Positions 35,456 through 37,770 of a stretch of 64,000 nucleotides of DNA are shown piece by piece (the stretch's first letter is position 1; every line of letters starts with the position of its first letter). The translations under genes were made by a program, and so were the position numbers. Under the pieces are notes generated by a model. It worked only from the letters and a program-made list of their open reading frames with translations, was not told where the DNA came from and searched no databases. The stretch spans positions 13,174,471 through 13,238,470 of the forward strand of contig NC_084819.1 of the NCBI RefSeq assembly GCF_963583255.1. Direction: 5' to 3'. This DNA comes from Pyrus communis (lineage: Eukaryota > Streptophyta > Magnoliopsida > Rosales > Rosaceae).

Positions 35456-35765
35456 TGCAAGGCTGAGTTTGTGGGTGAAAACCCAGGCCGAGTCCGAGAG
35501 AAGATGGAGGAGATCTTTGGGTGTGAGTTGACAAACTTTGATTTTGTCAATCACATTCAAAGGCAGCAGCAGAGGCAAGACGGATGAGATCTTTGGGTGT
35601 GAGTTGACAAACTTTGATTTTGTTGATCACATTCAAAGGCAGCAGCCATGGTGGAAGTGCAGAAGCAGCCAGAGCTTGAAGCAGAGTGTAAGGCGTCGAG
35701 CTTCACGATCGGCTAGTCGTTTGACAGCGGTCACTGAAGTTCTTCGTTGATTTTGATCATGGTGG
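35456..35765. repeat. Unidentified captured fragment with about 75-bp tandem duplication
   Basis: GAGATCTTTGGGTGTGAGTT ... ATTCAAAGGCAGCAGC occurs at about 35510-35572 and again at about 35587-35648. On the plus strand it can be read as FVGENPGRVREKMEEIFGCE and LTNFDFVNHIQRQQ. I do not recognise the source gene. It is the left end of the captured block. Confidence 0.45.
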
Positions 35766-35800
35766 CCAGAATAACGAACTCGAGGTAGTGCAAGGCGTCG
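35766..35800 (-). repeat. Junction repeat, copy 1
   Basis: About 33 bp, from GGCCAGAATAACGAACTCG on through GTAGTGCAAGGCG, is repeated at 36892-36926 next to the serine decarboxylase fragment. The two copies bracket the HMGR + Aux/IAA + decarboxylase module. Confidence 0.75.
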
Positions 35801-35837
35801 AGCTTGAAGTGGAGGAATTGCAGTGGCGCTAAGTGAT

Positions 35838-36015
35838 GAGCAGAGGTTGCCCGAAATTCCAATCACATCCATGTCAGGGAAGTCATTCTGGAGGAAATCC
35901 AAAACGTTTTGCACACCTTTGGAGACCATGTTCATTCTCATAGCATCACCAGTGCTGCCGGTGAATCTCATGTACAAGTTCTTCCCAGCAATGGCACACT
36001 TAATTGTCTGAAGCC
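35838..36015 (-). pseudogene. Captured HMG-CoA reductase fragment
   Basis: The minus-strand translation AIAGKNLYMRFTGSTGDAMR, then MNMVSKGVQNVLDFLQNDFP and DMDVIGISGN, matches the catalytic-domain segment of plant HMGR (mevalonate pathway), including the GDAM.MNM.SKG NADPH-binding block. A substitution changes the usual GMNM to RMNM. Only about 58 residues are present. It is fused in the same orientation to the Aux/IAA fragment upstream and to unrelated sequence downstream, so it cannot make an enzyme. Confidence 0.85.
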
Positions 36016-36019
36016 TCCC

Positions 36020-36757
36020 ACAGGTCTCTTAGTGAACATCTGCCAAGGAACATCGCCAACAAGCATCCAGTCATCATCCTTGTCCTCGAAAGTCAGAACA
36101 AATTCAGAACCATTGAGAAGATCCATCAATCGACTCGCACTCAGACCATCTCGCTCGGGAAGTCCATTAGAACTGCACTGCCCAATGGTGAAGCAGCTAA
36201 ACATCTTCTCCAGAGCCATGGAAAGTTCAGTGTAGTTGTTGTAGGTTTTAAGGTCAACTTTTCGCAGGTATGGAGCGCCGTCCATGCTAACCTTCACATA
36301 AAGGCACCCGGACCCTTGTTTACCCGCAGCGTCATCGTTGTTTTTCGCCAGACTAGAGGCCATGGAATTCTTCCGAAATGATCGAATTGGGGGCCATCCT
36401 ACCACCTGTGCCTTGCAAGAAGGAGAAGCAGCAGCATGCTCAGAGGCCAGAGTGTTCTTCTTCTCCAACTGAGCTGCTGGCTTTGGCGACAGAGGAACGG
36501 AAGAAACCTCCTTCTTGGCTAATGGAGAACCCAAGACTCCTGCTTTACCCACATCAACCTCAAATCCATTACTCATGGTAAAAAACCTATTTCTCAGAAC
36601 ACCCATCAATGGCGTCAGAGAATCCCCTTTTTGCCCCTGACACAGGGTTCTTTGGAGGGTTTGGAGACAACGCAGTTGGCTTGTTATTCTCCTCCAAATC
36701 TTTCCCAAAAAATGAGACCCCAAGTCCAAGCCCTGATGGTTTTTTTTTCTGTCAGGA
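36020..36757 (-). pseudogene. Captured Aux/IAA repressor fragment (domains II, III, IV)
   Basis: Translation gives a KRGFSDAIDG region, one stop and frame change near 36575-36595, then AQVVGWPPIRSFRKNSMASS (domain II degron core GWPP). Domain III follows (YVKVSMDGAPYLRKVDLKTY, LSMALEKMFSCFTIGQC), then part of domain IV (GSEFVLTFEDKDDDWMLVGD, VPWQMF). The protein is cut inside domain IV, where HMGR sequence begins. The reading runs straight through positions where plant Aux/IAA genes commonly have introns, which suggests a spliced-RNA origin. It is nearest to the IAA8/9/27 type. It is not a complete gene. Confidence 0.85.
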
Positions 36758-36762
36758 GAGTG

Positions 36763-36893
36763 GGACCGTTCCGGCTTCCCATGATTGTGGCATCCCTCGA
36801 AGCTAGGTATTCTACATTCCTTGAAAGGGCATTAATGTGCTCCAGCCTTGTTATCTGAACACCACAAGGCATTGGACATCCAGCAAACTTGTG
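36763..36893 (-). pseudogene. Captured serine decarboxylase fragment
   Basis: The minus-strand frame reads SGHKFAGCPMPCGVQITRLE, then HINALSRNVEYLASRDATIM and GSRNG. This is the region around the PLP-lysine (S-x-HK) of plant serine decarboxylase (group II PLP decarboxylase, choline/ethanolamine supply). Only about 43 residues remain. It is joined upstream to the junction repeat and downstream directly to Aux/IAA sequence. Confidence 0.85.
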
Positions 36894-36926
36894 ACCAGAA
36901 TAACGAACTCGAGGTAGTGCAAGGCG
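36892..36926 (-). repeat. Junction repeat, copy 2
   Basis: Direct repeat of 35766-35800 with one visible mismatch in the first bases. It ends at the splice between the decarboxylase fragment and the membrane-protein fragment. Confidence 0.75.
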
Positions 36927-36959
36927 TGAGGAGACAGAGGAAGGGGCTCCACCATCACC

Positions 36960-37404
36960 ATTGAGCACAGGCAAAGAAAATGGCCAAGAATCCTCCTGCA
37001 GCTGCCAGAGAAAGTATGAGAGAGATAGCAACGGCATCGAAAGTTGCTGCCGCAAAGAAAAGCGTGAAGACAAGCAACCCTGTCAAGGCAAGAAGAGTAA
37101 TAGTGCCAACAGAGATGACTAGCAGTGCACGGAGAGGGCTCCCCCTCCGAGTCCAGAGAAGAACGTTTCGCCCACTGTTTCTGGAAGCTTCGTGAAGCAG
37201 CGGACCGTTCTTGGCTAGAGAGGTTTTGATCCGTTGAAACAGCGGAGCAGCAGCACCGGCACTGGTGGAGCTGGGGAAGAGGATCTCAACAATCAGACGG
37301 TGGAAGATGCCGTAGAGAGTCTCCTCCCGGTTGGTGTGGATCTCGCCGTCGTTGTCGGTAACGTCCACGTGGACTCCGCCGTTGGTTCCGTATGGCTCCG
37401 CCAT
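36960..37404 (-). pseudogene. Captured plant membrane-protein fragment
   Basis: From ATG 37404: MAEPYGTNGGVHVDVTDNDG, then REETLYGIFHRLIVEILFPS, a LWTRRGSPLRALLVISVGTI block and two long hydrophobic segments (TLLALTGLLVFTLFFAAATF, SLILSLAAAGGFLAIFFA). It ends in the second hydrophobic segment. It resembles a conserved plant transmembrane (hairpin-forming) protein family that I cannot name with certainty. The frame is open but truncated. Confidence 0.5.
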
Positions 37405-37439
37405 TGGGGGACTTAACGGACGGTTGAGTGAGCAAGGAC

Positions 37440-37770
37440 TGAGCAAATCTGATTTTCAGATTAGCGGAAGAGGCTGCTCTGTCGTATTCCTCAATGAGAT
37501 TAACGAGATCCTCATCGGACTTGATGGATACGAGGGCGTCGAGATTCTCGGTGGGCAGTTGACAGCGCAGACTGACGGCCGTCACGGATGGCCCACACAA
37601 CTCAGTCAGCTTTGACGACAGTTCGTAAAAGGAAATAGAGCGGGGAACTGCAAGGACACGGGTTTTCCCGCTGAGGTAACGGAGCTTGCCGTCGGGGTAA
37701 CGGGGAGTCGACAGCGACAGGGAGCGGTTGTTGCAGTAGCCGTGTATTCTGATGGCTGCGATGGTGGAAC
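37440..37770 (-). pseudogene. Captured PB1-domain protein fragment
   Basis: The frame reads PDGKLRYLSGKTRVLAVPRS, ISFYELSSKLTELCG, SLRCQLPTENLDALVSIKSD, EDLVNLIEEYDRA. This is a plant PB1 (Phox/Bem1) interaction domain with the basic KLRY start and the acidic SDEDL...EEYDR OPCA-like motif. The rest of the protein is absent. The fragment overlaps in sequence with the start of the membrane-protein fragment. Confidence 0.8.

What the first reader, a model, noticed from the sequence alone, without database searches (positions are those of the whole stretch)
35456..37770. A Tat retrotransposon carrying a patchwork of at least five host gene fragments
Inside the element bounded by CAGCT duplications (31565-47410), between integrase and 3' LTR, fragments of a PB1-domain protein, a plant membrane protein, serine decarboxylase, Aux/IAA and HMG-CoA reductase are stitched end to end. 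All are in the gag-pol orientation. The Aux/IAA reading crosses places where introns are expected, which points to capture from spliced RNA by template switching during reverse transcription. Multi-gene capture by a plant LTR element is known (maize Bs1), but five sources in 2.4 kb is unusual. Seen: the fragments and junctions. Inferred: the RNA route.
Basis: partly seen in the sequence, partly recalled or inferred. Interest (0 to 1): 0.88.

Follow-up and report, generated by a model that had tools for sequence, protein, structure and literature searches.

The report
Retrotransposon family that collects host cDNAs
In what is likely a pear genome, a mobile element carries pieces of five plant genes joined end to end, without any of the four introns that could be checked, and related copies hold other plant gene pieces in the same slot, so the family likely picks up spliced host messages while copying its own RNA.

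Summary
A 15.8-kb LTR retrotransposon (31565-47410; LTRs 1006/1010 identical; CAGCT on both sides) carries, between integrase and an antisense ORF and in gag-pol orientation, pieces of a PB1 gene, a small membrane-protein gene, serine decarboxylase, Aux/IAA and HMG-CoA reductase. Two parents with introns across the captured stretch were found in the same genome: Aux/IAA (98%, three introns) and the membrane protein (98%, one). All four introns are exactly absent. The sources were spliced RNAs, so Helitron or Pack-MULE capture of genomic DNA does not fit. Parents of the PB1 and decarboxylase pieces could not be searched (server busy).

The surprise lies outside the window. Among 26 places sharing the sequence beside the slot I count 21 different contents; 14 of these 21 hold recognised host protein domains (cyclin, aldo/keto reductase, MATE, aquaporin). 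Pieces recur in new combinations. The four joints measured lie on or near 5-9 nt shared words. Seven of nine copies read further upstream lack reverse transcriptase and integrase. Best reading: repeated template switching onto host mRNAs. Gene capture by plant LTR elements is known (Bs1; pepper NLRs); I found no paper on a family with one refilled slot. New variant of a known kind.

The parts
31565..47410 (-). whole LTR retrotransposon (gag-pol on minus strand)
   Evidence: LTR pair 1006/1010 identical and CAGCT at both outer edges
46401..47410 (-). 5' LTR (1010 bp)
31565..32574 (-). 3' LTR (1010 bp)
38373..46481 (-). gag-pol frame with two in-frame stops; integrase core at its 3' end
   Evidence: open frames; rve E 6.5e-13
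37940..38097 (-). A-rich tract (sense strand), the 5' edge of the slot
   Evidence: sequence and tandem repeat scan; A-rich or AT-repeat tracts stand before the cargo in the other copies whose edge was printed
37450..37939 (-). captured piece 1: 5' part and PB1 domain of a PB1-domain gene
   Evidence: PB1 E 3.6e-15; parent gene not searched; the stretch 37720-37980 recurs in locus L015
36966..37466 (-). captured piece 2: N-terminal part of a membrane-protein gene, intron of about 1.84 kb absent
   Evidence: parent at C7:26407071 onward, 97.8% over 501 nt after splicing; intron gtgagt..gcag; protein relatives
36891..36977 (-). element tail block, first copy, inside the cargo
   Evidence: matching block stands next to the tail in L010, L013, L015, L016, L027
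36768..36899 (-). captured piece 3: serine decarboxylase
   Evidence: PDB 8jik E 1.1e-23; parent gene not searched
36012..36767 (-). captured piece 4: Aux/IAA (IAA21/27 type), three introns absent
   Evidence: parent on C7 between about 14933.7k and 14936.2k, about 98%
35837..36019 (-). captured piece 5: HMG-CoA reductase, inside one exon
   Evidence: gene at C3:17031532, 96.7% over 183 nt
35440..35846 (-). element tail block, second copy, the 3' edge of the slot
   Evidence: found in 27 of the 30 loci
34212..35072 (+). antisense ORF (286 aa) between slot and 3' LTR
   Evidence: its DNA found in 25 of the 26 places with tail block, L026 not in the stretch fetched; no Pfam family above its cut-off

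Best explanation
The patchwork is host cDNA, free of all four introns that could be tested, that likely entered this LTR retrotransposon when its reverse transcriptase switched templates onto spliced host mRNAs that would have been packaged with the element RNA. The step likely happened again and again at one slot: reverse transcription would start at the 3' LTR, pass the antisense-ORF region and the tail block, jump at a short shared word onto a host mRNA, run towards the 5' end of that mRNA, jump to further mRNAs, and return to the element RNA in the A-rich tract behind integrase. Shown: intron loss in two genes, the shared slot, differing contents in other copies, shared words at measured joints, pol-less carriers. 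Inferred: co-packaging, the direction of the jumps, and that pol-less carriers are moved in trans by complete relatives.
For: Intron loss: Aux/IAA parent introns of about 1.18, 0.26 and 0.23 kb and a membrane-protein parent intron of about 1.84 kb, all gt..ag, are exactly absent, 4 of 4 tested, in 2 of 5 genes; two other family loci (L039, L042) carry HMG-CoA reductase sequence that crosses a gene intron spliced. The first Aux/IAA intron ends in AGCAG and the cargo uses the second AG. Parents lie apart: C7 at 14.9 Mb, C7 at 26.4 Mb, C3 at 17.0 Mb. Joints: shared words of 9, 5 and 7 nt in the window and 8 nt in L005; random joints reach >=5 with P 0.006 and >=7 with P 0.0007. Slot: 26 places with the tail block show 21 different contents upstream of it (my grouping). 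Sense ORFs hit Pfam above cut-off in 17 of 24, antisense ORFs in 0 of 16. One Aux/IAA-HMGR joint in six loci has five upstream partners. The membrane-protein gene also sits in L007 with other ends, 375/377 to the spliced parent.
Against: Parents of the PB1 and serine decarboxylase pieces were never found, because the genome search did not complete, so their intron state and three of six joints are untested. The word CTGCTCA at the HMGR-to-tail joint lies 2 nt from the break, not on it. At three of the four joints measured the element side is another copy, used as a stand-in for the true template. The window's HMGR piece lies in one exon and says nothing on splicing. Intron state was not tested for the contents of the other copies, apart from HMGR in L039 and L042. 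The sense ORFs were picked by eye; the antisense ones were the longest per locus, 16 of the 19 listed, so the sets are not matched. Runs of 12 or more A stand inside the cargo, away from the edge, in 7 of 26 places (L011, L015, L020, L024, L026, L029, L030), which could be poly(A) tails of single insertions. L010 showed no element sequence but one 43-nt match in 2.5 kb upstream.
Confidence: 0.86

Rival explanations
1. A Helitron or Pack-MULE picked up gene pieces from genomic DNA and landed inside the retrotransposon.
For: Such elements are known to carry several gene pieces; a 37-bp direct repeat flanks the decarboxylase-Aux/IAA-HMGR part.
Against: All four testable introns are absent; no inverted repeats at the cargo edges other than AT runs; the 37-bp repeat belongs to the element's own tail block, of which the family copies with other contents hold matching parts. 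Helitron ends were not searched for as such.
Confidence: 0.03
2. A LINE-type machinery inserted processed pseudogenes one by one into the slot of the retrotransposon.
For: Intron loss is the same; A-rich tracts are next to the cargo; A runs of 12 or more stand inside the cargo in 7 of 26 places.
Against: In the window the A tract stands on the 5' side of the cargo and the joints read end inside coding sequence without poly(A); joints on or near 5-9 nt shared words; the same slot in the copies whose edges were read.
Confidence: 0.07
3. The pieces were first joined as one chimeric host gene or transcript by chromosomal rearrangement, and the element then took up this one transcript.
For: Pyrus has an annotated protein P0003 that is the Aux/IAA-HMGR fusion.
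Against: P0003 matches the open frame in the cargo of L005 at 99% over 99% and L004 and L006 hold the same frame, so it is most likely element cargo itself; the same joint has five upstream partners, which needs repeated joining; no non-element locus with the joint was among the matches listed, which are lower bounds.
Confidence: 0.04

Closest known systems
Bs1 of maize
   Same: LTR retrotransposon with segments of three host genes (PMC13317346, section 4 read)
   Different: Here five sources in one copy, and many family copies with different contents in one slot; the Bs1 paper itself was not held
NLR retroduplication in Capsicum
   Same: Spliced host mRNA inside LTR elements, about 72% of these NLRs in elements without gag or pol coding potential; two or three genes inside a single LTR element were also seen (PMC5664825, passages)
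   Different: There one gene class was followed; here pieces of unrelated genes are strung together and reshuffled in one slot
Gene fragments in maize LTR retrotransposons
   Same: 425 intact elements with gene fragments, from at least 189 captures (PMC2774510, passages)
Retand/Tat-type elements with long pol-3'LTR region
   Same: Long region with antisense ORF between pol and 3' LTR (PMC11963269, parts 1-3 of 5 read)
   Different: That survey reports no known domains in sense ORFs of this region and TRP28 in 97% of clusters; here sense host sequences and no TRP28 hit
Acutely transforming retroviruses (recalled)
   Same: Host cDNA replaces viral genes; carrier depends on a helper
   Different: Plant retrotransposon, many unrelated genes, no selected oncogene; comparison from memory only

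Membership tests
LTR retrotransposon, Ty3/Gypsy type | Two LTRs with target duplication | tested here: met
LTR retrotransposon, Ty3/Gypsy type | Integrase at the 3' end of pol, after RT and RNase H | tested here: inconclusive
   integrase core at the end of the frame; RT and RNase H were not profiled, only read by eye
Tat/Retand lineage | Long pol-3'LTR region with antisense ORF | tested here: met
   5.8 kb between 38372 and 32575 and a 286-aa antisense ORF
Tat/Retand lineage | TRP28 domain in the antisense ORF (97% of Retand clusters in PMC11963269) | tested here: not met
   no PF04195 at E<=1; membership in Retand is therefore not claimed
Tat/Retand lineage | Place of RT in a tree | not tested
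   no tree built
Transducing LTR retrotransposon (Bs1-like) | Host gene pieces inside the element | tested here: met
Transducing LTR retrotransposon (Bs1-like) | Pieces come from spliced RNA | tested here: met
   4 of 4 testable introns absent, in 2 of 5 genes
Transducing LTR retrotransposon (Bs1-like) | Chimeric gene transcribed and translated | not testable with these tools
   no expression data; a fused Aux/IAA-HMGR frame of about 318 aa is open in L004-L006
Pack-MULE | Terminal inverted repeats at the cargo edges | tested here: not met
   only AT runs pair across the edges
Helitron | Terminal TC..CTRR with hairpin (recalled) | not tested
   set aside because of intron loss
LINE-made processed pseudogene | 3' poly(A) and short target duplication at each insertion | tested here: inconclusive
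   none at the joints read; but A runs inside the cargo in 7 of 26 places

The most novel reading that the evidence does not exclude
A retrotransposon family works as an RNA-level gene collector: one fixed slot, bounded by an A-rich tract behind integrase and a tail block before the antisense ORF, acts as a pair of landing pads where reverse transcriptase leaves and rejoins the element RNA, so that nearly every lineage of copies carries its own string of spliced host cDNAs, mostly on pol-less carriers that complete relatives move.
Probability: 0.55. Interest if true: 0.87.

Novelty: new variant of a known kind. Interest (0 to 1): 0.77.

Why it matters
Exon shuffling through RNA is usually argued from single cases. 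A family with one slot and many different cargos gives a series in which order, age, joint sequences and donor mRNAs can be read, so rates and rules of host mRNA capture by a plant LTR element become measurable. It also warns annotators: at least one pear gene model (P0003) appears to be element cargo.

Tried and rejected
Nested DNA transposon: set aside because of intron loss and lack of inverted repeats. Single chimeric host gene taken up once: set aside because one joint has five upstream partners. L007 was first thought to be the parent of the membrane-protein piece; it is another element copy. L039 and L042 looked like HMGR genes but carry element tail and are family copies. Viral, metagenome and bacterial collections were not used, as I judged them of no help for a plant genome. 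A search for further fusion proteins showed only P0003 with both domains among the 120 listed of 6632. The spliced Aux/IAA parent built has an error of a few bases at its first exon joint, so its gap counts are slightly too high; the intron statements rest.

Full report
What was claimed and what is there. The element is real: two 1010-bp LTRs, 1006/1010 identical, CAGCT outside both. With the rate 1.3e-8 used in PMC5664825 (passage) four differences in 1010 bases mean about 0.15 million years since insertion. The gag-pol frame runs on the minus strand with two in-frame stops. Behind integrase, on the same strand, stand pieces of a PB1 gene, a membrane-protein gene, serine decarboxylase, Aux/IAA and HMG-CoA reductase. 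The membrane protein is unnamed in Pyrus and its relatives carry various names.

Which organism. The nearest proteins are from Pyrus and Malus. The genome G000 has 487 Mb, and its contig C11 has 27,006,843 bases, the length given for the contig that holds Pyrus communis protein P0140. Pyrus communis is thus the likely source; this is an inference.

Spliced RNA. The Aux/IAA parent lies on C7 near 14.93 Mb. Across the captured stretch it has introns of about 1.18, 0.26 and 0.23 kb with gt..ag ends, all exactly absent from the window at about 98% identity. The first intron ends in AGCAG, and the captured copy uses the second AG; that the protein variants SCKAQ and SCNRAQ reflect this choice is inferred. 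The membrane-protein parent on C7 near 26.41 Mb has a gt..ag intron of about 1.84 kb, also exactly absent (97.8% over 501 nt). The HMGR piece starts 13 nt inside an exon of the gene at C3:17031532 and says nothing on splicing itself, but two other family loci, L039 and L042, carry HMGR sequence across that intron, spliced. Parents of the PB1 and decarboxylase pieces were not found, because the search server did not answer.

Joints. At the four joints where both sides could be compared there are shared words on or close to the break: membrane protein to tail block TTGCCTGTG (9), Aux/IAA to HMGR AGGCT (5), HMGR to tail block CTGCTCA (7, two bases from the break), and in L005 HMGR to tail block CAGCAACA (8). 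Random joints reach 5 or more with probability 0.006 and 7 or more with 0.0007. For the tail side, three of the four, I used other copies as stand-ins. Three of the window's six joints could not be measured.

The family. One search listed 61 matches from 40 scored of 192 candidates and gave 30 loci; three of these (L007-L009) have no tail block, and L005 and L022 overlap, which leaves 26 places with the tail block, the window included. The antisense-ORF DNA was found in 25 of the 26, at 80-98% in the best piece outside the window. Upstream of the tail block, within the stretch fetched (mostly 1.5 kb), I count 21 different contents (my grouping, and some groups share a part, such as L017 with L018 and L020 with L024). 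Pfam families above their cut-offs appear in 14 of these 21 groups, among them response regulator, aquaporin, acid phosphatase, EAF, MRS2, exostosin, aldo/keto reductase, M20 peptidase, PB1, CCCH-ankyrin, MATE, EF-Tu-type GTPase, UBA and cyclin. Of 24 sense ORFs tested 17 had such a hit, of 16 antisense ORFs none; the sense set was chosen by eye, the antisense set as the longest per locus, 16 of 19 listed. The sense ORFs of L005, L010, L017, L018, L020, one of L021 and one of L030 had none above cut-off. L011 and L015 were not tested in sense. Intron state was not tested in these other contents, apart from HMGR in L039 and L042.

Reshuffling. One Aux/IAA-HMGR joint is shared by the window, its sister on C5 (L002) and L003-L006, but the upstream partner differs: decarboxylase (window, L002), aquaporin (L003), the stretch behind a response regulator (L004), and two further stretches that I read by eye as CBS-like (L005, L006; no Pfam support); there are two downstream joints. 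Pieces recur elsewhere, for example one stretch in L006, L012 and L018. The membrane-protein gene also appears in L007 with other ends and 375/377 identity to the spliced parent, which suggests a separate capture.

Carriers and edges. For nine copies I fetched 2.5 kb further upstream. Eight show the post-integrase block upstream of the cargo. In seven of these the match runs from gag to 42392-41814 and then, after less than 0.5 kb, to 38360, so RT, RNase H and integrase are missing (L027 is rearranged further upstream); L026 keeps the end of pol at 94%; L010 showed no element sequence except one 43-nt match. L007 has the pol-less arrangement too. In the copies whose slot edge was printed the cargo begins behind an A-rich or AT-repeat tract. 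Runs of 12 or more A also stand inside the cargo in 7 of 26 places. They may be places where pieces were swapped, or remains of poly(A) tails; I cannot tell.

Literature. A 2026 review (section 4 read) names Bs1 with three transduced genes and treats abnormal template switching as a known route. [quoted passage not shown] Rice and sorghum have 672 and 1343 captured genes (passages). In pepper many NLRs sit in non-autonomous LTR elements, and two or three genes inside one element were seen (passages). [quoted passage not shown] Three papers on pear LTR elements hold none of the words captur-, gene fragments, transduc- or host genes in the main text; passages of a Prunus review mention capture by MULEs only. 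In the listings of searches I saw no family like this one; subscription journals are mostly not held.

Verdict. The finding is larger than stated: not one odd element but a family with a slot that is refilled. Template switching on co-packaged host mRNA is the best reading; landing pads and helper dependence are inferred.

Noticed in passing
window 21002-29077: A second LTR element (repeats 21002-21786 and 28382-29077, 99-100% in the stretches compared) holds the same antisense-ORF region (24396-26474, about 82-88%) with no nucleotide match to the window element's gag-pol, so that region may be shared between element types.
   Followed up: partly
P0003 (Pyrus x bretschneideri): An annotated auxin-responsive protein IAA21-like is an Aux/IAA-HMGR fusion, 99% identical to the open frame in L005; it appears to be retrotransposon cargo, not a host gene.
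   Followed up: yes
window 35485-35636: A 76-base tandem duplication in the tail block; the C5 copy L002 seems to have more of it, judged by overlapping matches.
   Followed up: no
L003 and window, Aux/IAA start at 36767: Aquaporin (L003) and decarboxylase (window) both join Aux/IAA at the same base, and both cargos read AAC before it, which hints at a partner swap on a shared word.
   Followed up: no
L015:3040-3080 and L026:1275-1314: Runs of about 40 A stand between cargo pieces, perhaps poly(A) of a captured mRNA or a place where pieces were swapped.
   Followed up: no
window 31811-32032 and 46647-46868: The LTRs hold a run of about 46-48-base tandem repeats.
   Followed up: no
window 24255-24778: A perfect 262-base tandem duplication inside the second element.
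   Followed up: no
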